Below are positions 45,459 to 59,078 of a stretch of DNA of 64,000 nucleotides, piece after piece; the first letter of the stretch is position 1, and each line of letters opens with the position of its first letter. Source of the DNA: Amphritea japonica ATCC BAA-1530 (lineage in GTDB: Bacteria > Pseudomonadota > Gammaproteobacteria > Pseudomonadales > Balneatricaceae); contig NZ_AP014545.1 in NCBI RefSeq assembly GCF_016592435.1, positions 744,001 to 808,000 of the forward strand. Direction: 5' to 3'. Both the position numbers and the translations under genes were made by a program. The notes under the pieces are model-generated. The model worked only from the letters and a program-made list of their open reading frames with translations, did not search any database and was not told the origin of the DNA.

Positions 45459-46358
45459 ATGGCTGAAACAAGCTGGTTGAGTGAAATTCCTCAGCTGAGC
45501 CGGGGTGAACTGCGGGATATCCGTAAAGGCCTTGATGGTATTTACCGGGACTTTTCCCGGGAGTACGGTGAAACAATAGAAGCGTTGTTTGATCCGCTGC
45601 TTGCGTTTCTGGTGTGGTTTGAGAAGTTGTTACTGGCGAGTCCATGGTTTGTAATTATCGCCGTTATTGCTGCTCTGGCATGGGTAGCCAGCCGTTCCTG
45701 GAAACTCGTTCTGGGGGTTGTAGTCTCATTCTTTATGATCGGCTACTTCGGTATGTGGGACGATACCATGCGCACCATGAGTATCATTCTTGTGTGTACC
45801 TTGATGGCCATAGCGCTCGGGGTTCCCATTGGTATTGCGATGGCCCGCTCTGACCGAATTCAATCAACAGTCACGCCGATGCTCGACATTATGCAGACCA
45901 TGCCTGCATTTGTTTATCTGATACCCGTAGTGATGTTGCTGGGTATTGGTAAGATTCCGGGTGTTATCGCGGTAATCATTTATGCGATACCCCCGGTGAT
46001 TCGCTTAACCAACCTGGGTATCAGGCTGGTGGATAAAGATGTACTGGAGGCCGCAACCGCTTATGGTGCCAGTCCGATACAGCGGTTGATGGGCGTGCAG
46101 CTGCCTCTGGCGATGCCGACCATTATGGCCGGTATTAACCAGACCATTATGATGGCGTTGTCGATGGTGGTAATCGCTTCGATGATCGGCGTGAAAGGTT
46201 TGGGGCAGCCTGTATTGAAATCAATTACTAATCAGTACTTTACCCTGGGTCTTTTGAATGGCTTGGCGATTGTTGCGCTGGCGATTATCTTTGACCGGGT
46301 ATCACAGGCGTATGCGAAACGGAGTCAACAGCATATGGAGGGTCTGGAAAATGGCTGA
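45459..46358 (+). CDS. proW: Glycine betaine ABC transporter permease
   Basis: A 299-residue ProW-type permease. An amphipathic N-terminal region precedes about six transmembrane helices. The inner-membrane ABC signature is GAASPIQRLMGVQLPLAMPTI-like (AYGASPIQRLMGVQLP, about residues 205-220). A run of direct repeats (GAGGTGTTGTTTGC/GAGGCGTTGTTTG, 45418-45443) lies in the leader just before the gene. The stop overlaps the proV start by 8 nt. Confidence 0.93.
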   Translation: MAETSWLSEIPQLSRGELRDIRKGLDGIYRDFSREYGETIEALFDPLLAFLVWFEKLLLASPWFVIIAVIAALAWVASRSWKLVLGVVVSFFMIGYFGMWDDTMRTMSIILVCTLMAIALGVPIGIAMARSDRIQSTVTPMLDIMQTMPAFVYLIPVVMLLGIGKIPGVIAVIIYAIPPVIRLTNLGIRLVDKDVLEAATAYGASPIQRLMGVQLPLAMPTIMAGINQTIMMALSMVVIASMIGVKGLGQPVLKSITNQYFTLGLLNGLAIVALAIIFDRVSQAYAKRSQQHMEGLENG

Positions 46359-47595
46359 GCCAGTTCAAGATCAACAGGCACTGATTCGGATTGAAGGCTT
46401 GTATAAGCTGTTTGGTAGTAATCCGCAGAAGCACATGCCGCTGGTACATCAGGGCAAGAGTAAGGATGAAATCCTTGCCGCTACCGGGCACACCCTGGGT
46501 CTGAAAGACATCAACATGACCATTAATAAGGGTGAGATTTTTGTCATCATGGGGTTATCCGGCTCGGGTAAATCCACCCTGATTCGTCACTTCAATCGCT
46601 TGATTGACCCTACGGAAGGGGTGATCGAAATCGAAGGCACTGATGTGATGAAGTTGGGCGACAAGGAGTTGCAGAACTTCCGTCGTCATAAGATGTCCAT
46701 GGTCTTCCAGCGTTTCGGTTTGTTACCGCATAACACGGTTGTGGATAATGTTGCTTACGGCTTGTCGATACAGGGTGTCAGCAAAAGTGAAAGCAAAGCA
46801 AAAGCTAAAGAGTGGCTGGAAACGGTAGGCCTGGCAGGCTATGAAGAACAGTATCCTGCGCAACTCTCCGGTGGTCAGCAACAGCGTGTTGGCCTGGCAC
46901 GAGCATTGTGTACCGACGCAGAAATCCTGTTGATGGATGAAGCCTTTTCCGCACTGGATCCTTTGATTCGTTCTGAGATGCAGGATCAGCTTATTGAGCT
47001 GCAGGAAAAACTGCACAAGACTATCATTTTTATTACTCATGACTTGGATGAAGCACTGCGTATCGGTGACCGGATTGCGATCCTGAAAGATGGTGAGATG
47101 GTACAGCAGGGTGAGCCAGAAGATATCTTGCTCAATCCTGCGACAGATTATGTAGAAGCGTTTGTTCGTGATGTAAACCGGGCCCGGGCGCTGACGGTTG
47201 AGACCGTCATGAAAGATCCTGCTTATCGGATTACTGCTGATACGATAGAAGAAGCGTTGAAACAGATGCGCGGCTTCAAAGAGGATTACGGTTATTACGT
47301 TAATGATGACGGATATCAGGGGGTTGTTACAGAAGAGGCGTTGCAGGAAGCTTATGCGGAAGACAATGCTGCTGAAATGACTGTTGAATGCTGTGAAGAG
47401 CTGGATGCAATCTCGCCCGATGCGGTACTGGAAACGGTCATTCCTGACACGCTGAACTCTGAGTATTCATTACCTGTAGTGGATGATGACGGGCAATATA
47501 CCGGCAGACTCTCGCGGAGTACCCTGGCAGAAGTACTGGGGAATGAATCACCTGATGCTGAGTTGGTAGATGAGGCTGAGAGGAAGGCGGGATAG
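46351..47595 (+). CDS. proV: Glycine betaine ABC transporter ATPase
   Basis: A 414-residue ProV-type ATPase: Walker A GLSGSGKST (about 65-73), Q-loop FQRFGLLPH, signature LSGGQQQR, Walker B ILLMDEAFSALD and H-loop ITHDLDEAL. A C-terminal tail of about 130 residues resembles the CBS module used for osmotic gating in this family, but is weakly conserved. The start at 46351 has GGAGGG 8 nt upstream and overlaps proW; the frame runs further upstream inside proW. Confidence 0.94.
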   Translation: MAEPVQDQQALIRIEGLYKLFGSNPQKHMPLVHQGKSKDEILAATGHTLGLKDINMTINKGEIFVIMGLSGSGKSTLIRHFNRLIDPTEGVIEIEGTDVMKLGDKELQNFRRHKMSMVFQRFGLLPHNTVVDNVAYGLSIQGVSKSESKAKAKEWLETVGLAGYEEQYPAQLSGGQQQRVGLARALCTDAEILLMDEAFSALDPLIRSEMQDQLIELQEKLHKTIIFITHDLDEALRIGDRIAILKDGEMVQQGEPEDILLNPATDYVEAFVRDVNRARALTVETVMKDPAYRITADTIEEALKQMRGFKEDYGYYVNDDGYQGVVTEEALQEAYAEDNAAEMTVECCEELDAISPDAVLETVIPDTLNSEYSLPVVDDDGQYTGRLSRSTLAEVLGNESPDAELVDEAERKAG

Positions 47596-48615: not shown

Positions 48616-49362
48616 TTATCCAAGCCAACCCGTGAAACCTTTATAAATAACAAAAATCGCCGATACGGCCGATACGGTAAGCAATACCGGTTTAGCGCTA
48701 TCGGCGCGAATTTTCCCATCGACTTTATGGGCCAGCCAAAAACCGATCAATACGCCGGGTAGCATTTTCAGGCTAAGCATCGCTATATCCGCATCGATAT
48801 TTCCTTGCTGAACTAAGGCGAGGATAGAGAAGGGTGTGCCGATCATAAAGAACGCGGCGAGTTCGTTACGGATGGTGATGCGGTTTTGTTCCTGATACAC
48901 CAGCGCCATGGGTGGGCCACCCACTGAGGTTGCCGTGCCGATCAATCCTGAGAAGAATCCTGCAATGATCAGGCTGAGCTTTGTTGTCTGTACTCGAAAA
49001 ACTTTCCAGGTCAGTAACACAGCTAATAGGAGTGTGATACCAAATAGCAGGCTCAGGCTCCAGGCGGGAATAGAGACTAGTAGCAGCGCCCCAAACCATG
49101 CGCCGGGCAGACGAGCGATGATTGCCGGGGTTATTCTGCGCCAACTTAACTCGCCTTGATTTTTCATCAGGGTCAGCCTTGATACGACCAGAACCGATAA
49201 GCTAGTCCCCAGAATCAGAACTGGGCCGGGCACATAGGAAGGGTTGATCAGAAAAAGCAGTGGGGCCGCAACTAAACCAAAGCCGATGCCAAACCAGGTT
49301 TGCATGACGATACCGCAGGTCACAATCAGCAATGCCAGGAGTTCGGGTTGGGTGTAGAGCAT
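48616..49362 (-). CDS. TSUP (TauE/SafE) family exporter
   Basis: A 248-residue membrane protein with about eight helices and the TSUP repeats (GFGLVAAPLLFLINPSYVPGP in the first half, GFFSGLIGTATSVGGPPMALVY in the second). The family exports sulfite, sulfoacetate and related organic anions. Neighbours give no clear substrate, though a link to osmolyte or methylated-amine metabolism on either side is possible. Codon use and GC fit the neighbourhood. Confidence 0.85.
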   Translation of the reverse strand: MLYTQPELLALLIVTCGIVMQTWFGIGFGLVAAPLLFLINPSYVPGPVLILGTSLSVLVVSRLTLMKNQGELSWRRITPAIIARLPGAWFGALLLVSIPAWSLSLLFGITLLLAVLLTWKVFRVQTTKLSLIIAGFFSGLIGTATSVGGPPMALVYQEQNRITIRNELAAFFMIGTPFSILALVQQGNIDADIAMLSLKMLPGVLIGFWLAHKVDGKIRADSAKPVLLTVSAVSAIFVIYKGFTGWLG

Positions 49363-49492
49363 GTAGGAATAGAGTCCGTAATAGTGGCTAGGCGAGCCTG
49401 GAGCATACCCCGCAGCTCAAAATGGCACTAGCAGAAATTCAGCCTACAACGTTTATTGTTATGAATACTACTGTGCGAATAAAGAAAAGCAT

Positions 49493-49552
49493 CTAGCGAC
49501 TAGCAAGGGAACGAAGTTCCCGTCCAGTAAGTCACGTAGCGACGTCTGGCTG
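49493..49552 (-). repeat. Double-hairpin intergenic repeat, copy C
   Basis: On the minus strand: CCAGACGTCGC-TAC-GTGAC, TTACTGGAC, then hairpin GGGAAC-TTC-GTTCCC and TTGCTAGTCGCTAG. It lies downstream of the DUF3726 terminator, in the same direction as that gene. The rest of the 350-nt gap 49363-49712 holds the terminator below and no gene; a possible diverged fragment (GTGGCTAGGCGAG) starts at 49385. Confidence 0.8.
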
Positions 49553-49593
49553 TATTAATCTGAGAAGGTTTTATTTACTGCCGTCGTGTATGT

Positions 49594-49637
49594 AAAAAAA
49601 GACCCCGTTTCCGGTGGTGCTAACCAGAAGCAGGGTC
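49594..49637 (-). terminator. Terminator after the DUF3726 gene
   Basis: On the minus strand the stem pairs GACCCTG and TTCTGG with CCGGAA and CGGGGTC around a loop of about 9 nt, and is followed by seven T. Confidence 0.9.
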
Positions 49638-49712
49638 GTTTGTATCAAGTGATATCGCTACACCTCTATAGTACCGATAGCACCTAATTTTTGTGGTGAT
49701 TAATTGCTAACC

Positions 49713-50462
49713 TCAGCGGCCACCTGCGCCCTGGCGGGACCGCTCGTTGTTCTCGACCAGTACGCCTTCACCGATTTTGTTGATTTGAGCCCAGAGCGCT
49801 TCATCGATATCGATACCGTTATCAACGCTGTATTCTTTGTTCAATTCAACCTGCTTAGCACTGATATAGCGCGCATTCTGGTTGCCTTTTGAGCGCTGCA
49901 GAGACGAAGTGAGGTCGACGCGGGAGCTACAGATAATAGTCAGTGCCTGCTTATCTTCTTCATTAGAAGACAGCGTGGTCGTGGCTTCGCTATAACTCGG
50001 GTAACGTTCACCGGCTTTGATGGCAGCGGTATGCTCGGTAACCGTTTGGCTACCGTTCTGCCAGTAGGCTGCAACACTGATGCCCCGACGACCGCAATCG
50101 GTCAGTGCTTTGAGAATAAACATCCGGTTATGACAGTTATGTACCGTCACGGTTGCAATCCCATTCTCCAGCGCCTTAGCATGTGCCAGATCGACAGAGG
50201 CTGCAATACAGTTTAATGCGCTGCGGCCGTTGCTATCGATAATTGCTGATGTGCTGTCTTCATAGATAACAGAGCTTGCCTCTTTTGTGCTGTCTTCGCC
50301 GATAAAAGGTAATGCCCGTTCTAATTCGCTCAGACCGTTAAGTCCGTGCTTTTCCAGCCATAGAATCATATTAGCAGCATCTTCATAGTTACCTACAAAG
50401 TAACCAGTGGCTTCAAAGCAGCGTCGCAGAGCGGCTTTTAGTTCGATCATAGAGACATGCAT
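49713..50462 (-). CDS. DUF3726-like protein
   Basis: A 249-residue cytoplasmic protein beginning MHVSMIELKAALRRCFEATG, with EDAANMILWLEKHGLNGL. This pattern fits the DUF3726 family as I remember it and faintly resembles the N-terminal helical part of Ldh2-type dehydrogenases. No catalytic motif can be assigned. It is translationally coupled (TGATG overlap) to the 573-residue protein upstream, and both lie in the LysR-associated locus. The family call is moderate; the function is unknown. Confidence 0.55.
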   Translation of the reverse strand: MHVSMIELKAALRRCFEATGYFVGNYEDAANMILWLEKHGLNGLSELERALPFIGEDSTKEASSVIYEDSTSAIIDSNGRSALNCIAASVDLAHAKALENGIATVTVHNCHNRMFILKALTDCGRRGISVAAYWQNGSQTVTEHTAAIKAGERYPSYSEATTTLSSNEEDKQALTIICSSRVDLTSSLQRSKGNQNARYISAKQVELNKEYSVDNGIDIDEALWAQINKIGEGVLVENNERSRQGAGGR

Positions 50463-52183
50463 CAGAATTCTCCTTGCTGCTGTGGTGCCAGAGGCATAAA
50501 CCAGTCGTCGTTGAATGTTTTGCCTATATCTTCCAGAAGCGGAGCGCCCTGGAACATCGTGTTACGAACCCAGAGTTTGGATCGTGGATCAAACTTACCG
50601 ACACCAAAGAATGCCAGTTTGGCACGCAAAAGGTGCATCGGTAGGATTTCACGATCCAACAGGTTTGCCTGAATATCACCGTAGATACAGCGATTCATGC
50701 TTTGAATACGACGTACGATTCCACGAAGCTTGGGTTGTGCAACCATAAAGCGGGCAGTGCTGTGTTCTGGGTTCTCTGCCATATATTCAGAGAGCTGGTC
50801 GTAGCATCTGCGTACGGCATAAGCGACACCCAGAGCCATCTCTTTATCTTTACCATCTTCGTCACGGGCATTACCCAGACGCGGCTCCATCTTCTCCTCA
50901 GAACGGTACCAGAACGTATCTTTGGCGCCTTCAGCTGCGAAGTCGAAACTGAGTGCCCATTGATAGCGGTCTTCGATCACTTGCTTTAATTCTTGTAGTG
51001 GCATTATCGGATCAAGATCCTGAAACTCTTCTGCCGTATGATAATCTTCCAGGTCGTCGACCAACTCTGGATAGAGTTCCAGCATCACAGACACCAGCAT
51101 TTCCTGTCCCTGTAGCGAGCAGTTCTTCTCACTCCACTGCAATAAGGTTTCCCAGCTGTCGAAGCCGTTTCGGGTATGTTCGCGAATCGCGTCCAGATCT
51201 TTCAGTACCTGTTGGTTGTTGGCTGTTTGCCAATCATCTTCGGTTACGGTTTCTGCGGTATGGACTGCGCAGCGTTCCAGTAATTCAGGGAACTGCTGTT
51301 GGATGCGATGATTGATATTGCCTAATACGCGGACCCTTGCCAGTGCCAGCTCTCGCATCTCCACCCATTGGTTGATCAATAACGGATGGTTGATCAGATA
51401 AGGGGCCATGCCCAGACCGGTTGAGTTGCCAATACCGAAGAAACGTTTGATCTCAGGCAGCATCGGGTTATAGCTTTCCGGCGCTTTGTGTTGGGCGATA
51501 TGTTCTGCCTGTAGCAGGCTGAAGTTACGCAGCATTAAGCAGACAAACATCTCCGCTGCAAAGGGGCGGGCAAAGTCGGCATGACGGCTGGCTACTTTTT
51601 CCCAGTCGGCCATACCCAGTTTTCCGCTGCCGTATACGGCGGTGGTCCGGTACAGATAACCGACTTTAGCAATCTGTGCCACATCTGGCTGTTTGCTGTT
51701 GGCCAGCTGATCAACAACATAGTCAAAGTTACGGGCACTACGGTTGGCACGTGACAGAACAAATACCCGGGCATCAACTCTTCCGGCTTCTTGTTTAGGC
51801 ACGTTCTGACGTAGTTTTTCCAGATAAAGATCATCAACTTCACCATCAACCAGGGCCATAGTCAGGTCCCACTTGGTAGCAATGACCCGATCGTTTCGTT
51901 CGTCTGGAGACAGATAATCGGAAAATAATACAAAACTGTATAGTTTGTTTGGAGTGTTGATTTCGTAGACTACGGTGCCATAGCCTTGTTCGTCCAGCTC
52001 AAAGCGAGCGGGTTCTATCTGCCACCGCTCACGCATAATCCGGCGTACCAAAGTACGCATAAAACTCAGCCGGCTCTGGTGAATGGCGCCTAATCGTTCC
52101 AGGTCCATTACCTGATTGATTGGCCGTAGCGGTAGTGCGTTGTCGCCTCTCAGGGCAGCTTTTATAGCAGCTGGCGTGGTCAT
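50462..52183 (-). CDS. Conserved-looking 573-residue protein of unknown function
   Basis: A 573-residue soluble protein, rich in helix, aromatic and acidic residues, with no signal peptide or membrane segment. I cannot assign a family. Notable features are YGTVVYEINTPNKLYSFVLF near residue 75, many paired Arg/Asp motifs and a C-terminal SKLWVRNTMFQGAPL. The start at 52183 has AGGA 8 nt upstream; the frame extends to 52261. It ends in a TGATG overlap with the DUF3726 gene, so the two proteins are made together and may act as a complex. A LysR-type box (52521-52535) lies in the 437-nt gap upstream. The frame is long, with coding-like composition, so it is certainly a gene. Confidence 0.75.
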   Translation of the reverse strand: MTTPAAIKAALRGDNALPLRPINQVMDLERLGAIHQSRLSFMRTLVRRIMRERWQIEPARFELDEQGYGTVVYEINTPNKLYSFVLFSDYLSPDERNDRVIATKWDLTMALVDGEVDDLYLEKLRQNVPKQEAGRVDARVFVLSRANRSARNFDYVVDQLANSKQPDVAQIAKVGYLYRTTAVYGSGKLGMADWEKVASRHADFARPFAAEMFVCLMLRNFSLLQAEHIAQHKAPESYNPMLPEIKRFFGIGNSTGLGMAPYLINHPLLINQWVEMRELALARVRVLGNINHRIQQQFPELLERCAVHTAETVTEDDWQTANNQQVLKDLDAIREHTRNGFDSWETLLQWSEKNCSLQGQEMLVSVMLELYPELVDDLEDYHTAEEFQDLDPIMPLQELKQVIEDRYQWALSFDFAAEGAKDTFWYRSEEKMEPRLGNARDEDGKDKEMALGVAYAVRRCYDQLSEYMAENPEHSTARFMVAQPKLRGIVRRIQSMNRCIYGDIQANLLDREILPMHLLRAKLAFFGVGKFDPRSKLWVRNTMFQGAPLLEDIGKTFNDDWFMPLAPQQQGEF

Positions 52184-52520
52184 TATTATTATCCTCGTTA
52201 AATAGCTACTTGAGACAGCATGAAAGCTATTGTGTAACACTTTCAAACGTTCTCTATACATCGTTTATAAGTTCGGCGCTTAATGACCGACAACAGCATA
52301 GATATGTTCGAAACCTCTTTTTTATTTGCTCTGCTGGTTTCGGTTGTAATGGTTATATGCAGAGCTATACGAGGAAGGGTGAAGCTGTCCCATACGCAAT
52401 TGAGTTAAGTATGGCTCAGATCTGAGGGTGCATAAAAATCTGATTGGCTGCCCTTCCGGTATACCACTTATCATGGGGTAAAAAGCGGAGAGCACACAAA
52501 TCAGAAGGTTATATCGGCTA

Positions 52521-52535
52521 ATAAGAGAAACTTAT
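52521..52535. promoter_or_regulatory. LysR-type operator before the 573-residue gene
   Basis: ATAAG-AGAAA-CTTAT: perfect 5-base arms of the T-N11-A class. The same ATAAG-N5-CTTAT pattern occurs between lysR and the aldehyde dehydrogenase gene. The rest of the gap 52184-52620 must hold the minus-strand promoter; I see no other gene there. Confidence 0.65.
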
Positions 52536-52620
52536 CAAAACACCGCAAACTATTATTTTTTCTATAGGTGTAGGCCTGTAGAACAGGTTGTTAGGGGTGA
52601 ATGTTTTTTATTTTTTGCTG

Positions 52621-53520
52621 TTATTTTCCTGAATTACTGCGTGCCAGAATGAAATCGACTAAAGCCTGTGCCGGTGGAGTCAGTGATTTATTAGTCAGCT
52701 TTACGATGCCGATACGGCGGGTTACGACGGGTGTGCTTAGTGGAATAAAGCACAGGGTATCGCTCTCTTTTGGCACTGCATAGCGGGGCAGTGTTGTCAC
52801 ACCAAAGCCAGCTTCCAACATAGCAATCAGTGAAATCATGTTAGAGATATAGAATTGAGAGTGGCCCAGCAGTGGTCGTGCTTCACTGTCCTCTAATAGA
52901 CGGGAGGTGCCGTTTCCGATCAGGCGGTGCTTGCGCAGTTCCTTCCAGTGAAGCTCTTCATGTGCAGCTAGTGGGTGATCTTTGGGGCAGACGACGCCGA
53001 TCTGATCTTCCCATATAGGGATAAAGGTTTTATCGCTGTGCTCCTGTTCATGAAACAGATGGGCGATACCGAAATCTACCTGTTGATTCTCAACCATTCG
53101 ATAGACCGCATCGGAGTTATCGTCAAAGAAGCTGATATGCAGCTCAGGTGTGTCGTTGACGAACTCCAGTAATAGCTCGGGCAATACCTGGCTGGCAATG
53201 GAAGGCACGGAAGCCAGGCGCAGGTGGCCGGTCTTGTGCTCTGCCAGCAGCGTCATGTCCTGCGAAATCCGATCGTGATGTTCGATAAGCTCTTTGGCTT
53301 TTGGCAGGAAATACTGACCGAAAGGTGTCAGTTCTGTTTTGGCGGTCTTGGCGTTGCGCTTTTCAAAGAGTGATTCCCCGAGTTTATTTTCCAGATCACG
53401 AATTGAGAGAGAGATGGCGGGCTGGGTGCGATGAGCTTTCTCTGCGGCAGCGTGAAAGCCTTTTAGCTCGGCAACCCAGACAAAGTGACGCAGTTGAGCA
53501 ATCTTAAACTCTGGCAGCAT
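52621..53520 (-). CDS. LysR-family regulator of the catabolic locus
   Basis: A 299-residue LysR protein. The N-terminal helix-turn-helix (QLRHFVWVAELKGFHAAAEKAHRTQPAISLSIRDLE) is complete and is followed by the two-lobed effector-binding domain. It is divergent from the aldehyde dehydrogenase gene, with a palindromic T-N11-A box (53542-53558) between them, the classical autoregulatory arrangement. A second copy of the box upstream of the minus-strand 573-residue gene suggests one regulator for both units. The inducer is unknown. Confidence 0.92.
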   Translation of the reverse strand: MLPEFKIAQLRHFVWVAELKGFHAAAEKAHRTQPAISLSIRDLENKLGESLFEKRNAKTAKTELTPFGQYFLPKAKELIEHHDRISQDMTLLAEHKTGHLRLASVPSIASQVLPELLLEFVNDTPELHISFFDDNSDAVYRMVENQQVDFGIAHLFHEQEHSDKTFIPIWEDQIGVVCPKDHPLAAHEELHWKELRKHRLIGNGTSRLLEDSEARPLLGHSQFYISNMISLIAMLEAGFGVTTLPRYAVPKESDTLCFIPLSTPVVTRRIGIVKLTNKSLTPPAQALVDFILARSNSGK

Positions 53521-53541
53521 GATGCACCTCTGAAATATCTA

Positions 53542-53558
53542 GATAAGAAAATCTTATC
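53542..53558. promoter_or_regulatory. LysR-type operator in the lysR-aldehyde dehydrogenase gap
   Basis: GATAAGA-AAA-TCTTATC: perfect 7-base arms containing ATAAG-N5-CTTAT (T-N11-A). It lies 21 nt upstream of the lysR start and about 78 nt upstream of the dehydrogenase ATG. Confidence 0.75.
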
Positions 53559-53635
53559 GCGGAATATTATTTATTAATTTTTATTATTAAAGCACGAAGT
53601 CTATGATTGATCCATATACATGCAGGAGGTCAAAA

Positions 53636-55081
53636 ATGTCTGATTCAGTTTTTCAAAATTACATTGCAGGTGAGTGGGTCGAAGGTAACAAAGGCAGCGT
53701 GGCAAACATCAGCCCTGCTGATATCAGCGATGTGATCGGCCAATATGCTCAGGCTGATAAAGCTCAGACGGAAGCGGCTATCGCTGCAGCAGCAGTCGGC
53801 CAGATTGAGTGGCAGAAGAGTGGTCTGGAACAGCGTTATTCTGTATTGATGGCGATCGGTGATGAGCTAATCGCCCGTAAAGATGAGTTGGGTGAATTAC
53901 TGGCACGTGAAGAGGGCAAGACACTGGCTGAAGGGGTAGGTGAAACTTATCGCTCCGGTCAGTTCTTCCATTACTACGCTGCTGAAGTACTGCGTCAGAT
54001 GGGTGAAACCGCTGAATCAGTTCGTCCGGGCATCGAAATTGAAACCCGTCGTGAGCCAGTAGGCGTTGTAGGCATCATCACTCCGTGGAACTTCCCGACG
54101 GCTACCGGCGCATGGAAAATTGCACCGGCACTGGCATTCGGTAACGCGGTAGTTTGGAAGCCTGCTAACCAGGTGCCAGCATCTGCTTGGGCTTTGACTG
54201 AAATTATCTCTCGTCAGGGATTACCTGCAGGCACTATGAACCTGGTGATGGGTCCGGGTGCTGAAGTCGGTGATGTACTGATTAATTCCCGCGGTATTAA
54301 TGCGCTGACCTTTACCGGTTCGCTGGATACAGGCCGCAAAGTAGCGGCTGCAACAGCGGTAAATCTGGTTAAGTGCCAGTTAGAAATGGGTAGCAAGAAC
54401 GCGCTGGTTGTACTGGATGATGCTGATCTGGCTAACGCTGTTGAGTGTGCCGTAGGTGGTGCTTTCGGCGGTACGGGTCAGAAGTGTACTGCGTCTTCCC
54501 GTTTGATTGTGACCGAAGGAATTCACGATCGTTTCGTTGAGGCGATGGTTGAGCGTATGAAGAAGCTGGTTGTCGGTCATCCGATGAAGGCTGGTGTAAA
54601 TATCGGTGCAGTTGCTGATGCCCGCCAGATGGAGCAGAACCTGCAATACCTGGAAACGGCTAAGAGCGAAGGTGGCAGGCTGGTCTGTGGTGGCGAGGTG
54701 CTAACCGAAGAGACCGAAGGTTACTACATGCAGCCAGCGTTGTTCACTGAAACAACTAACGCGATGACTATCAACCGTGAAGAAGCGTTTGCACCGATCG
54801 CCTGCATTATCAAGGTTAAAGATTACGATGAAGCACTGGCGACGCTGAATGATACAAACTTCGGTCTGACCGGCGGTATCTGCACACAGTCTCTGAAATA
54901 TGCAACTGACTTCAAACGTAATGCCAAAACAGGTTGTGTGATGGTTAACCTGCCAACGGCCGGTACCGATTACCACGTTCCATTCGGTGGGCGTAAAGAT
55001 TCCAGCTTTGGACCACGTGAACAGGGAACTTATGCCAAAGAGTTCTACACCGTTGTGAAGACAACCTACATCAGCGCTTAA
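53636..55081 (+). CDS. NAD(P)-dependent aldehyde dehydrogenase
   Basis: A 481-residue ALDH-superfamily enzyme. PWNFPTATGAWKIAPALAFGN forms the cofactor-binding region, LEMGSKNA carries the general-base Glu (about 250) and FGGTGQKCTASS carries the catalytic Cys at 284. The AGGAGG site 6 nt before 53636 fixes the start. Sequence flavour is that of the semialdehyde dehydrogenases (ketoglutaric or succinic semialdehyde types); the exact substrate cannot be told. It heads the unit followed by the dipeptidase-like, BCCT and RidA genes, so it probably oxidises an aldehyde released from an imported nitrogen compound. Confidence 0.92.
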   Translation: MSDSVFQNYIAGEWVEGNKGSVANISPADISDVIGQYAQADKAQTEAAIAAAAVGQIEWQKSGLEQRYSVLMAIGDELIARKDELGELLAREEGKTLAEGVGETYRSGQFFHYYAAEVLRQMGETAESVRPGIEIETRREPVGVVGIITPWNFPTATGAWKIAPALAFGNAVVWKPANQVPASAWALTEIISRQGLPAGTMNLVMGPGAEVGDVLINSRGINALTFTGSLDTGRKVAAATAVNLVKCQLEMGSKNALVVLDDADLANAVECAVGGAFGGTGQKCTASSRLIVTEGIHDRFVEAMVERMKKLVVGHPMKAGVNIGAVADARQMEQNLQYLETAKSEGGRLVCGGEVLTEETEGYYMQPALFTETTNAMTINREEAFAPIACIIKVKDYDEALATLNDTNFGLTGGICTQSLKYATDFKRNAKTGCVMVNLPTAGTDYHVPFGGRKDSSFGPREQGTYAKEFYTVVKTTYISA

Positions 55082-55121
55082 CGCTTTATTTATTTACGAG
55101 CTTAGGTCTGGAGGTATTGCT

Positions 55122-56108
55122 ATGCATAACGAAATGATCGTAATTGACGGGCTCCAGTACTCCAACTGGAACCGCAAGATCTTCGAACAGCTGCGCGAAG
55201 GTGGTGTAACGATGGTGCATGCCACCATCGTTTACCACGAGCAGATTCGTGAAACTTTGATGCGTATCTCTGAGTGGAATCGTCACTTTGAGATGAACAG
55301 CGATCTGATCATGCCGGTCAGAAGCGCGGATGATATTCGTCTGGCGAAGCAGCTGGGTAAAGTGGGCATCATGTTCGGCGCTCAGAACTGCTCGCCGATT
55401 GAGGATGATATCGGCATGGTCGAGGTGATGCGTGAGCTGAACCTGATGATCATGCAGCTGACCTATAACAATCAGAGTCTGTTGGCTTGCGGTTGCTATG
55501 AAGCTGAAGATAGCGGTGTAACCCGCTTTGGTCGCCAGGCGATCAAAGAGATGAACCGGGTCGGCATGATTGTGGATATGAGCCACAGCGGTGAGCGCAG
55601 TACGCTCGACGCGATCGAGATTTCTGAACGTCCGATTGTTATCTCCCATGCGAACCCATTGAGCTTCCATGAAGCCAAGCGTAATAAGTCTGACAAAGTA
55701 CTGAAAGCACTGGGTGAATCTGGCGGTCTGCTGGGCTTCAGTCTGTATCCGTTCCATCTTAAGAACGGCCCGGATTGTACCCTGGAAGATTTCTGCGACA
55801 TGGTGGCCAGCACTGCTGACCTGATGGGGATCGATCAGATCGGGATTGGTACCGATCTGTGCCAGGAACAACCCTTGTCGATTCTGGAATGGATGCGCAA
55901 TGGTCGCTGGTCGAAAGCTATGGACTATGGCGAAGGCTCTAAGGCAAATGCTGACTGGCCACGTCCACTGTCATGGTTCCGTGATAGTCGTGATTTTCCG
56001 AATCTGACAGATGGTCTGCAGGCGCGGGGCTTCAGCGATGAAGAGGTGGCAAAGATCATGGGTCTGAACTGGCTCAACTTTTTAGATGAAGGGCTGAAGG
56101 CTCGCTGA
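55122..56108 (+). CDS. Membrane-dipeptidase-like (M19) amidohydrolase, altered metal site
   Basis: A 328-residue M19-type TIM-barrel protein. His155 (DMSHS) and His176 (ISHAN) of the metal site are present. The N-terminal HxD pair of true renal dipeptidases is replaced by DGLQ (about residues 9-12), and the bridging Glu is replaced in FGAQN (about 85-89). It therefore probably does not hydrolyse dipeptides with a normal di-zinc centre. A similar M19 protein lies beside the dimethylglycine catabolism genes of Pseudomonas aeruginosa (from memory). No signal peptide, so it is cytoplasmic. A GGAGG site precedes the ATG. Confidence 0.82.
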   Translation: MHNEMIVIDGLQYSNWNRKIFEQLREGGVTMVHATIVYHEQIRETLMRISEWNRHFEMNSDLIMPVRSADDIRLAKQLGKVGIMFGAQNCSPIEDDIGMVEVMRELNLMIMQLTYNNQSLLACGCYEAEDSGVTRFGRQAIKEMNRVGMIVDMSHSGERSTLDAIEISERPIVISHANPLSFHEAKRNKSDKVLKALGESGGLLGFSLYPFHLKNGPDCTLEDFCDMVASTADLMGIDQIGIGTDLCQEQPLSILEWMRNGRWSKAMDYGEGSKANADWPRPLSWFRDSRDFPNLTDGLQARGFSDEEVAKIMGLNWLNFLDEGLKAR

Positions 56109-56148
56109 ATTCAGCGCTGTAATCCCGATGAATAGTTTTATAACCCTT

Positions 56149-56185
56149 TATGGTGCAGGCCAATGAGAGTCCGGCATGCACCATA
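56149..56185 (+). other. Strong hairpin before the BCCT gene
   Basis: TATGGTGCA pairs with TGCACCATA, extended by GGC/GCC across a one-base bulge, with a loop of about 12 nt. No T-run follows. It lies between the dipeptidase-like and transporter genes and could be a processing or stability element. Confidence 0.6.
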
Positions 56186-56232
56186 GATTTACCTGATAAC
56201 TAATAAATATAAAGATCCGTCAGGAGACTAAA

Positions 56233-57813
56233 ATGAGTAACACAACCCAAGCTGCTGTTGCCGGGCAACAGTCAGCCAATCAAGAGGCTTCTATGGCCGA
56301 CAACAAGCTATTGGCAGGCGTAGATCTGCCAGTATTCCTAATCAGTGGTGGTGTACTGGTGCTGTTCGCAGCCTTTGCCCTATATGACATTGAAATGATG
56401 TCTGGCTGGGTTAACAGTGCATTTGCTACCTCGACAAAATACTTTGGCGCTTACTGGCAAATTCTGCTGCTGTTAACTTTTGTTATCGGCCTTTTCCTGA
56501 CTATCGGTCGTACCGGTTCCGTTGTATTAGGTGGTGTTAAAGCGCCTGAAATGCCAACGTTCCAGTGGATCTCGGTGATCATGTGTACCCTGCTTGCGGG
56601 TGGCGGTGTGTTCTGGGCGGCAGCTGAGCCAATGGCGCACTTTACTTCAGCACCACCGCTATTTTCAGGTACTGAAGCCGGTACTATTGATGCGGCTTAC
56701 AACGCATTAGCGCAGAGCTTCATGCACTGGGGCTTCCTGGCCTGGGCGATTCTGGGTAGTCTGACCGGCATCGTATTCATGTATCTGCATTATGAGAAAG
56801 GTCTGCCGCTTAAGCCGCGTACATTGTTGTATCCGGTATTTGGTGACAAGGTTATGACCGGCCCGTTGGGTGCAATTGTTGATTCAAGCTGTGTTCTGGC
56901 GGTGGTTGCCGGTACGGTAGGCCCGATCGGTTTTCTGGGACTGCAAGTGAGCTTTGGTCTGGAGAAACTGTTCGGTATCCCTAATACCTACGCGACTCAG
57001 GTAATGATTCTGGTCGGTTTGATCGGTATCTACACGATCTCTGCGGTAAGCGGTGTGACCAAAGGTATCCAGATCCTCAGCCGGGCTAACGTGATTCTGG
57101 CTGTTATCCTGATGGCGTTTATCCTGATCTTCGGACCAACCGCATTCATTATTGATGGCTACCTACACTCTTTCGGTATCTATCTGGATCAGTTTATTCC
57201 GATGGCGACTTTCCGTTCTAGTCCTGGCTGGTTGGACTGGTGGACTGTGTTCTTCTGGGGCTGGTTCCTGGGTTACGGTCCTTTGATGGCGATGTTTGTT
57301 GCCCGCATATCTAAAGGCCGCACTATCCGTGAAATGGTACTGCTGATCTCAGTGGTCGCACCGATTATTACCTGCTTCTGGTTTACTATCGTGGGTGGTA
57401 GCGGTCTGGCATACGAGCTGGCAACACCGGGTGTAATATCCGAGCCATTCACTGGCTTTAACCTACCGGCTGCGCTACTGGCAATTACAGAACAGCTGCC
57501 GATGGGCTTTATGATTTCGGTTCTGTTCCTGATTCTGACCACTATCTTTGTGGCAACTACCGGTGACTCCATGACTTACGCTGTATCCATGGTAATGACC
57601 GGTACTGACCATCCTCAGGCGTTTGTCCGTGTTTTCTGGGGCATCATGATGGGTGTTGTTGCTGCGCTGTTGATCTCAATCGGATCAGGCGGTATCTCTG
57701 CGCTGCAATCCTTTATCGTCGTGACGGCGGTACCGGTATCGCTAGTCTTGTTGCCCTCGCTTTGGACGGCACCACAGATCGCCCGCAAGATGGCCGACGA
57801 GCAGGGACTGTAA
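56233..57813 (+). CDS. BCCT-family transporter, divergent
   Basis: A 526-residue secondary transporter with twelve hydrophobic helices and the BCCT hallmark MFVARISKGRTIREM (about 353-367). The preceding tryptophan-rich segment that lines the betaine site reads WTVFFWGWFLGYGPLMAMF (about 337-355), where typical betaine carriers have WxxWWxxWxP. Two of the usual Trp positions are lost, so the substrate may not be a classical trimethylammonium compound. AGGAG lies 7 nt before the ATG. It is presumably the importer for the compound degraded by this locus. A terminator follows. Confidence 0.92.
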   Translation: MSNTTQAAVAGQQSANQEASMADNKLLAGVDLPVFLISGGVLVLFAAFALYDIEMMSGWVNSAFATSTKYFGAYWQILLLLTFVIGLFLTIGRTGSVVLGGVKAPEMPTFQWISVIMCTLLAGGGVFWAAAEPMAHFTSAPPLFSGTEAGTIDAAYNALAQSFMHWGFLAWAILGSLTGIVFMYLHYEKGLPLKPRTLLYPVFGDKVMTGPLGAIVDSSCVLAVVAGTVGPIGFLGLQVSFGLEKLFGIPNTYATQVMILVGLIGIYTISAVSGVTKGIQILSRANVILAVILMAFILIFGPTAFIIDGYLHSFGIYLDQFIPMATFRSSPGWLDWWTVFFWGWFLGYGPLMAMFVARISKGRTIREMVLLISVVAPIITCFWFTIVGGSGLAYELATPGVISEPFTGFNLPAALLAITEQLPMGFMISVLFLILTTIFVATTGDSMTYAVSMVMTGTDHPQAFVRVFWGIMMGVVAALLISIGSGGISALQSFIVVTAVPVSLVLLPSLWTAPQIARKMADEQGL

Positions 57814-57823
57814 ATCAAGGTTG

Positions 57824-57860
57824 AAAAGAGCAGCGGCGATTGTCGCTGCTCTTTTGTTTT
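57824..57860 (+). terminator. Terminator after the BCCT gene
   Basis: A twelve-base stem AAAAGAGCAGCG/CGCTGCTCTTTT with an 8-nt loop and GTTTT downstream, 10 nt after the stop. Confidence 0.93.
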
Positions 57861-57871
57861 GAGAAATGATT

Positions 57872-57981
57872 ACCACAGAGAACACAGAGGGCATTGAGAA
57901 AAACGCTACTAATCAGGCTACTGTATAAGGCGCCTTTAAGTAGTTTTTAATTTTCCTCTGTGTGCTCCGAGTTCTCTGTGG
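57872..57981. repeat. Inverted-repeat element with ACCACAGAGAAC ends
   Basis: ACCACAGAGAAC plus ACAGAGG at 57872 is mirrored at 57954-57981 (CCTCTGTG then GTTCTCTGTGGT), enclosing about 60 nt. The right arm carries a 9-nt insertion relative to the left. Repeats of the CCACAGAG type are common intergenic elements in gammaproteobacteria. It may supply or disturb the ridA leader. Confidence 0.7.
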
Positions 57982-58019
57982 TGACAATGTTTTAAATATT
58001 TTTCTATTTTTATAAGTGA

Positions 58020-58406
58020 ATGACTATGAAACAAGCTGTAAAGACTGAACTGTTTGCCTCTAAGGCTCCACTGGAATGGGCGGTTATCGCTAATGGCCAG
58101 TTGTCGACTGCACAGATTCCAATCAATGCTGAAGGTCAGGTTGTTGAGGGTGGTATCGAGGCCCAGGCGCGTCAGACCATGGAGAACTTTAAGCACACGA
58201 TTGAAGCCGCTGAGCTGACGATGGCTGATGTGACTCAGGTACTGATCTACGTAACAGACCGTTCCCAGTTACCAGTATTCAATAAAGTTTACGCTGACTA
58301 CTTTGAAGCACCGTACCCGAACCGTGCAGCGATGATCGTTGCCGGTCTGGCGCGTGAAGAGATGCTTTGTGAGATCGTCGCATACGCCACCGTTCCGGCT
58401 GCTTAA
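58020..58406 (+). CDS. RidA/YjgF-family protein
   Basis: A 128-residue RidA-family protein. The conserved substrate-binding Arg is in YPNRAAMIV (about residue 101), and the C-terminal LCEIVAYA segment has the conserved Glu. RidA proteins deaminate reactive enamines/imines. Here one may clear an imine formed when the imported amine is oxidised. It is separated from the BCCT gene by a terminator and an inverted-repeat element, so it may have its own promoter. An in-frame ATG at 58026 is an alternative start. Confidence 0.9.
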   Translation: MTMKQAVKTELFASKAPLEWAVIANGQLSTAQIPINAEGQVVEGGIEAQARQTMENFKHTIEAAELTMADVTQVLIYVTDRSQLPVFNKVYADYFEAPYPNRAAMIVAGLAREEMLCEIVAYATVPAA

Positions 58407-58416
58407 TTACGCGACA

Positions 58417-58485
58417 GTAGCTAGAACGGAGCCTTCGGCTCCTGCTAGTGGCTAGATGGAAAACTGCGTTTTCCTTGCTAGAAAA
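58417..58485 (+). repeat. Double-hairpin intergenic repeat, copy B
   Basis: GTAGCTAGAAC, hairpin GGAGCC-TTC-GGCTCC (58428-58442), TGCTAGTGGCTAGAT, hairpin GGAAAAC-TGC-GTTTTCC (58458-58474), TTGCTAG. Same plan as copy A with different, fully paired stems. It lies directly after ridA, in its direction. A possible decayed fifth copy (minus strand) lies at about 58603-58640. Confidence 0.85.
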
Positions 58486-58537
58486 AGCCTTTTGGTTTTA
58501 GTGCTTTATTCCAGGTTGTCCCTTGCCTTTGGCTCTC

Positions 58538-58570
58538 AGGCGTATCGAGTAATCGATACGCCTTTTTTTG
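58538..58570 (+). terminator. Terminator after ridA
   Basis: An eleven-base perfect stem AGGCGTATCGA/TCGATACGCCT with a GTAA tetraloop and a long T-run. Confidence 0.95.
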
Positions 58571-58664
58571 TAAGGAAAGATTGCGAGTAGAGTTGGGTGT
58601 TTCTAGCCGCTAGTGATTCAACATCTTGCGATTAGCTAAACTGCGATCCAATATAAGATACGAA

Positions 58665-59078
58665 CTATCTATTACAAACGATTCTGATCCGTTCGGCAGG
58701 TACCCGTAGCTGGGTGATCAGGTATTCTTTAAACAATGCATCATAAGGTTGCAGTTCAACTGCTTTTTGCATGCAGAGGATCCAGGCGTCGCTTTCGCTG
58801 TGGCCGATATCCAGGTGGCTGTGGGAGGCGGGGATGCTGATGGGGCCGAAGGTTTCGGCGTAGCGTCTGGGGCCGCCAAGCCAGCCAGACAGGAAATAGA
58901 TTAGCTTCTTTCTGGATTCGCTCAGGTCGTTAGGGTGCATATCCCGGATTCGTTTAGATTCCGGAATGTCATCCATAATGTCGTAGAAGTCGTTGACCAG
59001 TAGAGTCAGACCGGCCAGTTCGCCAGCTGCTTTATAGGAGTTGTCGCCTTCGCCGTATCGGTTGTTTGTGGAATTCAT
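58665..59078 (-). CDS. Group II truncated haemoglobin
   Basis: A 137-residue globin-like protein. Group II features are visible: GGPRRYAETFGPISIPASH, then HLDIGHSESDAWILCMQKAV, with the proximal-His region in SHSHL. Such globins bind O2 or NO and can help detoxify reactive nitrogen species. ATG at 59078 gives the normal length; the frame extends upstream through the end of the next gene, and no strong ribosome site is visible. It follows the VF530 gene by 16 nt and is probably co-transcribed. Confidence 0.85.
   Translation of the reverse strand: MNSTNNRYGEGDNSYKAAGELAGLTLLVNDFYDIMDDIPESKRIRDMHPNDLSESRKKLIYFLSGWLGGPRRYAETFGPISIPASHSHLDIGHSESDAWILCMQKAVELQPYDALFKEYLITQLRVPAERIRIVCNR

What the first reader, a model, noticed from the sequence alone, without database searches (positions are those of the whole stretch)
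49713..58406. Candidate undescribed LysR-controlled catabolic locus
Two transcription units flank a LysR gene. Rightward are an aldehyde dehydrogenase, a dipeptidase-like protein with a changed metal site, a BCCT carrier with a changed tryptophan box and, behind a terminator, RidA. Leftward are a 573-residue unknown protein translationally coupled to a DUF3726-like protein. The parts make sense as uptake and breakdown of a nitrogen-containing solute, but none of the textbook betaine, choline, carnitine or sarcosine enzymes is present. The two unknown proteins would then be the key new enzymes.
Basis: partly seen in the sequence, partly recalled or inferred. Interest (0 to 1): 0.85.

Follow-up and report, generated by a model that had tools for sequence, protein, structure and literature searches.

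The report
LysR-controlled N-methyl solute breakdown locus
A widespread set of bacterial genes under one shared switch most likely imports and breaks down homarine, an abundant nitrogen-containing solute of marine algae, using a key protein whose predicted shape matched no solved structure.

Summary
In detail: all seven genes are there, the left pair overlaps by TGATG, the M19 "dipeptidase" lacks the usual HxD motif and the BCCT carrier has an altered tryptophan box; both changes are invariant in the orthologues aligned. The two units are one system. In 95 loci chosen only for holding U573, ALDH lies within 8 kb in 79 and M19 in 86. Some genera have a single operon ALDH-M19-BCCT-U573-DUF3726-RidA with divergent LysR, and one Mesorhizobium has U573 and DUF3726 fused. 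A palindrome, ATAAG-N5-CTTAT, precedes both units; the whole genome holds three exact copies. It precedes both units in 23 of 23 split loci and never precedes U573 in 51 single-operon loci. Neighbours in other genomes (sarcosine-oxidase/Mgd-type operon, formate dehydrogenase, betaine transporters) point to an N-methylated, betaine-like solute broken down to an N-methylamino acid and formate. Best candidate: homarine, whose pathway was published in 2026 (seen only as a citation), so "undescribed" is probably outdated; the link is inferred. U573 has a confident model (pTM 0.91) without a significant PDB match and is the most interesting part.

The parts
49713..50462 (-). DUF3726 protein, 249 aa; residues 5-138 weakly resemble the N-terminal part of Ldh_2 dehydrogenases
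   Evidence: PF12525 80.9 bits; Ldh_2 32.8 bits, below its 38.8 cut-off; the L113 relative passes the Ldh_2 cut-off (44.1 bits); profile comparison weak (probability 38%, E 3.3e-4)
50462..52183 (-). U573, 573-aa protein without known family; candidate ring-attacking enzyme
52521..52535 (.). Palindrome ATAAG-N5-CTTAT before the left unit, predicted LysR site
52621..53520 (-). LysR-type regulator
53543..53557 (.). Palindrome ATAAG-N5-CTTAT between LysR and ALDH, predicted LysR site
53636..55081 (+). Aldehyde dehydrogenase, best NCBIfam match alpha-ketoglutaric semialdehyde dehydrogenase (482 bits, below its 770 cut-off)
55122..56108 (+). M19 amidohydrolase-like protein with altered metal site
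56233..57813 (+). BCCT carrier with altered tryptophan box
57824..57855 (+). Intrinsic terminator behind BCCT
57858..57996 (.). Imperfect inverted-repeat element, repeated in the genome
58020..58406 (+). RidA family protein
   Evidence: last gene of the operon in single-operon relatives

Best explanation
One regulon for uptake and breakdown of an N-methylated betaine-type solute, most likely homarine (N-methylpicolinate). The BCCT carrier imports it. U573 with DUF3726 attacks and opens the N-methylpyridinium ring between C5 and C6. ALDH oxidises the freed C5 aldehyde to a carboxylate. The M19 protein removes C6 as formate from the N-formyl intermediate. RidA (in other genomes a full Ldh_2 enzyme) resolves the enamine/imine, giving N-methylglutamate, which a sarcosine-oxidase/Mgd-type enzyme turns into glutamate and a C1 unit. 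The LysR protein binds ATAAG-N5-CTTAT before both units and switches them together. Shown by computation: gene set, conservation, shared palindrome, fusion, neighbours. Inferred: substrate, order of steps, all chemistry, LysR binding.
For: In 95 U573 loci: ALDH within 8 kb in 79, M19 in 86, a DUF3726 relative within 500 bp in 87; LysR in 76, BCCT in 67, RidA in 49. Single operon in Halomonas, Marinobacter and several Pseudomonas. An 814-aa gene covering U573 and named DUF3726 in Mesorhizobium. Palindrome. Glycine-betaine ABC transporters take the carrier's place in Aminobacter and Shinella. SoxA/Mgd-type operon near U573 in 8 of 95 loci, also in P. inhibens 2.10 and L030. In TM1040, Aliiroseovarius, Phaeobacter 2.10 and Shinella a helix-turn-helix or GlxA-type regulator stands between it and LysR (AraC/GbdR-like by profile in two scanned), as TmaR lies upstream of mgdABCD in R. 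pomeroyi (PMC13390433, passages). Formate dehydrogenase behind RidA in 5 Halomonas loci and near LysR in L079 (alpha subunit passes its cut-off); purU in Shinella. [quoted passage not shown] Recalled, from no call: the published operon is homABCDER, five enzymes plus regulator, which fits ALDH, M19, U573, DUF3726 and RidA-or-Ldh plus LysR.
Against: No gene here could be tied directly to homarine; the homarine paper is not held. In the window's genome the only listed long SoxA-type match lies elsewhere (2703151-2706159, 1468 bits); no copy of the lower-scoring class seen beside some U573 loci (800-910 bits) is listed for it. Mgd was not told apart from sarcosine oxidase. R. pomeroyi grew less well on homarine than on trigonelline (PMC8269262, passage), though it drew homarine down quickly in PMC12817926 (passage); whether R. 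pomeroyi has the locus was not tested. The left gene occurs without ALDH and M19 nearby in L030, L032/L052 (same contig), L074, L123 and, with a truncated right flank, L072. A rhizobial subfamily (about 30% identity) has no ALDH. RidA was found in only 49 of 95 loci.
Confidence: 0.62

Rival explanations
1. Same single-regulon reading, but the substrate is another N-methylated or quaternary solute (for example trigonelline, proline betaine, hydroxyproline betaine or an N-methylated amino acid).
For: BCCT and betaine-type carriers do not single out homarine; the ALDH is nearest to alpha-ketoglutaric semialdehyde dehydrogenase, an enzyme of hydroxyproline breakdown (pathway recalled); U573 relatives occur in soil and plant-associated bacteria too.
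Against: No Rieske or other oxygenase family was recognised among the genes of the locus, as the known trigonelline and proline-betaine routes would need (TgnA/TgnB; the rest recalled).
Confidence: 0.25
2. The left and right units are two separate systems that happen to flank one LysR gene.
For: U573-DUF3726 occurs without ALDH and M19 nearby in a few loci (L030, L032/L052, L074, L123).
Against: Co-directional single operons in other genera, 79 of 95 and 86 of 95 co-occurrence, the palindrome before both units in 23 of 23 split loci.
Confidence: 0.04
3. The locus mainly serves osmotic protection or general amine detoxification rather than nutrition.
For: BCCT carriers and RidA often have such roles (recalled).
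Against: Enzymes ALDH, M19, U573 and DUF3726 are more conserved than the carrier or RidA; C1-handling genes (formate dehydrogenase, sarcosine-oxidase type) lie beside it in relatives.
Confidence: 0.05

Closest known systems
Homarine catabolic pathway (Ferrer-Gonzalez et al. 2026, Nat Microbiol 11:1531; reference seen, paper not read; operon name homABCDER recalled)
   Same: Conserved pathway in environmental bacteria in which N-methylglutamate dehydrogenase takes part
   Different: Gene-by-gene identity could not be tested; here the operon is split into two units around LysR
Trigonelline degradation (TgnA/TgnB mentioned in PMC8269262, passage; further details recalled)
   Same: Breakdown of an N-methylpyridinium carboxylate; an ALDH and a hydrolase follow ring opening (recalled)
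   Different: [quoted passage not shown] no oxygenase family recognised in this locus
Amidohydrolase 2i5g (from recall: Pseudomonas aeruginosa)
   Same: Aligned over window M19 residues 1-321, E 7.5e-74, with the same DGL and Gln changes
   Different: Genomic setting and substrate of 2i5g not examined here
BetP-type BCCT transporters
   Same: Same family
   Different: Two Trp of the second aromatic stretch are Phe and Tyr in 55 of 55 orthologues
IclR-linked subfamily in Sinorhizobium, Neorhizobium and Aminobacter (about 30% identity)
   Same: U573 relative, small ORF, M19 and transporter; RidA near in Neorhizobium and Aminobacter
   Different: IclR regulator, ABC transporter, no ALDH; probably another substrate

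Membership tests
Homarine (hom) operon | Five enzyme genes plus regulator (recalled) | tested here: inconclusive
   Conserved ALDH, M19, U573, DUF3726, RidA or Ldh, plus LysR; the published gene list could not be read
Homarine (hom) operon | Link to N-methylglutamate dehydrogenase | tested here: inconclusive
   Sarcosine-oxidase/Mgd-type operon near U573 in 8 of 95 loci and in L143, L030; Mgd not told apart from sarcosine oxidase; none in the window's locus
Homarine (hom) operon | Growth on and induction by homarine | not testable with these tools
   Needs culture work
BCCT transporter | Family profile above curated cut-off | tested here: met
   PF02028 500.7 bits, cut-off 27
BetP-like betaine carrier | Intact tryptophan box | tested here: not met
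   Phe and Tyr replace two Trp in 55 of 55 orthologues
M19 family | Family profile above curated cut-off | tested here: met
   PF01244 278.5 bits, cut-off 26
Active binuclear M19 dipeptidase | HxD and bridging Glu metal ligands (recalled) | tested here: not met
   DGLQY and Q88 in 62 of 62 orthologues
DUF3726 | Profile above cut-off | tested here: met
   80.9 bits, cut-off 22.1
Ldh_2 dehydrogenase | Full-length match above cut-off | tested here: not met
   Residues 5-138 only, 32.8 bits against 38.8
LysR regulators | HTH_1 and LysR_substrate domains | tested here: met
   DNA binding itself not testable
RidA | Ribonuc_L-PSP profile above cut-off | tested here: met
   76.3 bits, cut-off 27.3
Trigonelline (tgn) pathway | TgnA/TgnB oxygenase | not tested
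   The genome was not searched for tgn genes

The most novel reading that the evidence does not exclude
U573 and DUF3726 form a new kind of enzyme pair, with a fold not found among solved structures, that opens an N-methylated nitrogen ring without a recognisable oxygenase domain. The family has branched: the LysR/ALDH branch serves one solute, while the rhizobial IclR branch without ALDH, and a relative in the haloarchaeon Natrinema beside a BCCT carrier, serve others not yet described. If the LysR branch is not homarine either, it is an undescribed pathway found in 29 of 398 sampled genomes of the phylum.
Probability: 0.3. Interest if true: 0.82.

Novelty: new member of a known kind. Interest (0 to 1): 0.5.

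Why it matters
Homarine was reported at up to 3% of particulate carbon in North Pacific samples (PMC8269262, abstract passage; a later correction says concentrations were overstated, PMC10134881, search listing). A locus that marks its breakdown would let this carbon and nitrogen flow be read from genomes. The shared palindrome gives a direct test of co-regulation, and the U573/DUF3726 pair, without a significant match among solved structures, is a concrete target for enzymology.

Tried and rejected
Two unrelated neighbours: rejected by single-operon relatives, co-occurrence and the shared palindrome.

Function of U573 from sequence or fold: Pfam, NCBIfam, phmmer, PDB profile search and Foldseek against PDB and viral models gave no significant match. 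A first model from 13 sequences (pLDDT 74.8; its search) was replaced by one from 51 (pLDDT 90). The 51 rows are the window plus 50 of the 57 non-redundant ORFs; L050, L051, L052, L055, L056, L065 and L090 were left out. U573 against DUF3726 profiles: no relation.

Genes I first noted as an opine-oxidase-like heterotrimer (notebook) proved to belong to the sarcosine-oxidase/Mgd-type operon. Formate dehydrogenase: one search counted 8 loci; I dropped L093 and L118 (30% identity, 225 and 229 bits). The looser cluster label also appears in L054, L072 and L121, which one search did not confirm.

First palindrome count used 350 bp upstream and so missed the window's own left site; one search widened this to 450 bp.

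Third exact palindrome in the genome (1456863-1456877): between genes that by eye resemble a tripartite tricarboxylate transporter and a D-amino-acid dehydrogenase (no profile run); not followed, may be chance.

Literature: no paper in the library holds 'DUF3726'. Searches on homarine, dipeptidase, BCCT, trigonelline and LysR showed no title or abstract describing this gene set; of the papers listed I saw only passages of five. Rfam: no match at gathering thresholds in 49300-58700.
Full report
What is there. The window lies in a 3.83-Mb single-contig genome whose U573 protein is 89% identical to that of Amphritea atlantica, so it is probably an Amphritea. The seven genes named in the finding are present with the expected family matches. 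U573, the 573-residue protein, has no match in Pfam or NCBIfam and none of significance among PDB sequences. Its stop overlaps the DUF3726 start (TGATG) behind an AAGGAG site.

The M19 protein lacks the HxD motif (canonical motif recalled) and carries Gln where the fungal relative GliJ has Glu; 2i5g, its nearest solved relative, has the same changes. In 62 orthologues of at least 40% identity D9, L11, Q12, Y13, Q88, H155, H176 and D245 never vary. The BCCT carrier reads FFWGWFLGY where solved carriers read FYWAWWIAW or similar; the Phe and Tyr that replace two Trp are in 55 of 55 orthologues of at least 40% identity. So the M19 protein and the carrier look specialised, not decayed.

The units belong together. 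U573 was found in 25 of 57 relatives. DUF3726 was found in 22 of the same 57, all 22 among those 25; in the other three (G017, G025, G032) a divergent ORF, 21-22% identical, lies at the same place. In 95 loci (these 80 plus 15 plasmid loci that I picked; some cut by contig ends) ALDH lies within 8 kb of U573 in 79, M19 in 86, and a DUF3726 relative within 500 bp in 87. LysR was found in 76, BCCT in 67 and RidA in 49. Of the 76 loci of at least 14 kb, 65 hold ALDH, M19, LysR and DUF3726 together. Marinobacter, Halomonas and several Pseudomonas have a single operon ALDH-M19-BCCT-U573-DUF3726-RidA with divergent LysR. In Mesorhizobium sp. 131-2-1 one 814-residue gene, annotated as DUF3726, also covers U573. 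Exceptions: L030, L032/L052 (same contig), L074, L123 and, with a short right flank, L072 show the left gene without ALDH and M19 nearby.

A shared operator is predicted. ATAAG-N5-CTTAT occurs exactly twice in the 64-kb window, 0.06 expected (1 of 100 shuffles reached two), once in each intergenic region beside LysR, and three times in the whole genome, against nine for the reversed control pattern. Of 97 loci (96 relatives plus the window) 74 could be classed; 16 lacked ALDH and 7 lacked LysR. In 23 of 23 split loci, the window included, the site (up to 1 mismatch) stands before both ALDH and U573 (exact in 17 and 18). In 51 single-operon loci it stands before ALDH in 19 and before U573 in none. 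Control intervals of the same loci hold it in 37 of 2281. The loci are related to each other, so these counts are not independent. In nine roseobacter and rhizobial plasmid loci the best site before ALDH has 3 or more mismatches.

What it degrades. The carrier is BCCT or, in Aminobacter and Shinella, a glycine-betaine ABC system, which suggests a small zwitterionic betaine; Mesorhizobium has another ABC type. A sarcosine-oxidase/Mgd-type operon lies near U573 in 8 of 95 loci (L068, L075, L112, L113, L120, L133, L136, L137; three of the eight are plasmid loci), also in P. inhibens 2.10 and L030. With an assumed chance frequency of 0.01-0.02 per locus, 8 or more of 95 has a binomial tail of 6e-6 to 7e-4; this ignores relatedness. 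In TM1040, Aliiroseovarius, Phaeobacter 2.10 and Shinella a helix-turn-helix or GlxA-type regulator stands between this operon and LysR; the two that were scanned resemble the AraC-type GbdR. In R. pomeroyi the AraC-type TmaR lies upstream of mgdABCD (PMC13390433, passages), and the same paper cites a 2026 report that Mgd takes part in homarine catabolism. Formate dehydrogenase follows RidA in five Halomonas loci (the alpha subunit of one passes its equivalog cut-off) and lies near LysR in L079. purU lies nearby in Shinella. An N-methylamino acid and formate are therefore likely products.

A route that fits. Homarine has six carbons besides its N-methyl group, N-methylglutamate five. Opening the C5-C6 bond leaves an aldehyde at C5, for an ALDH nearest to (but below the cut-off of) alpha-ketoglutaric semialdehyde dehydrogenase, and an N-formyl group, for an amidohydrolase-like M19 protein, which releases formate. 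An imine/enamine step follows, for RidA or for the Ldh_2 enzyme found downstream of DUF3726 in Mesorhizobium, Aminobacter, Shinella and several roseobacters. The ring attack is left to U573 with DUF3726. Every chemical step is inference.

Is U573 new? The model from 51 sequences is confident (pLDDT 90, pTM 0.91). Foldseek found nothing with E<=0.001 in the PDB (best 0.43) or among viral models (best 0.22). AlphaFold DB was not available, so relatives among predicted cellular proteins are untested. Relatives at about 30% identity lie on Sinorhizobium, Neorhizobium and Aminobacter plasmids with an IclR regulator, an M19 gene and an ABC transporter but no ALDH, and in the archaeon Natrinema near a BCCT carrier.

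Distribution. In a sample of 398 genomes of the phylum 29 hold U573, 16 of them in one family (f73, unnamed; probably Rhodobacteraceae). In one genus of that family 33 of 56 genomes hold it. I recall that the published homarine operon occurs in Rhodobacterales, SAR11 and SAR116; SAR11, SAR116 and R. pomeroyi were not tested.

Verdict. A real, coherent and widespread catabolic regulon, probably the homarine system described in 2026, here in a split arrangement with a predicted LysR operator. The substrate is an inference (0.62).

Noticed in passing
window 57858-57996: Imperfect inverted-repeat element between BCCT and RidA; its core CCACAGAGNACACAGAG has 31 matches (up to 1 mismatch) in the genome. 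It may have separated RidA from the operon.
   Followed up: partly
window 48616-49362: TauE/SafE permease downstream of the left unit; its cluster occurs in 20 of 103 loci, mostly right after DUF3726, so it may be an optional part.
   Followed up: no
window 46258-47595: ABC ATPase that by eye resembles the ProV subunit of a glycine-betaine transporter (no profile run); also near the locus in several same-genus genomes.
   Followed up: no
L166 7864-7878 (genome 1456863-1456877): The only other exact ATAAG-N5-CTTAT in the genome, between genes that by eye resemble a tripartite tricarboxylate transporter and a D-amino-acid dehydrogenase.
   Followed up: partly
L131 8223-16438; L134 8198-16640; L135 8196-16687: Rhizobial loci with IclR, a U573 relative of about 30% identity, a small ORF, M19 and an ABC transporter but no ALDH; RidA adjoins in L134 and L135. 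Possibly a second pathway.
   Followed up: partly
L132 6035-14285: U573 relative in the haloarchaeon Natrinema versiforme, near an annotated ALDH and a BCCT carrier.
   Followed up: no
L030 9018-18407: Second U573-DUF3726 copy in genome G003, without ALDH/M19 nearby but with a sarcosine-oxidase-type gene within 8 kb.
   Followed up: no
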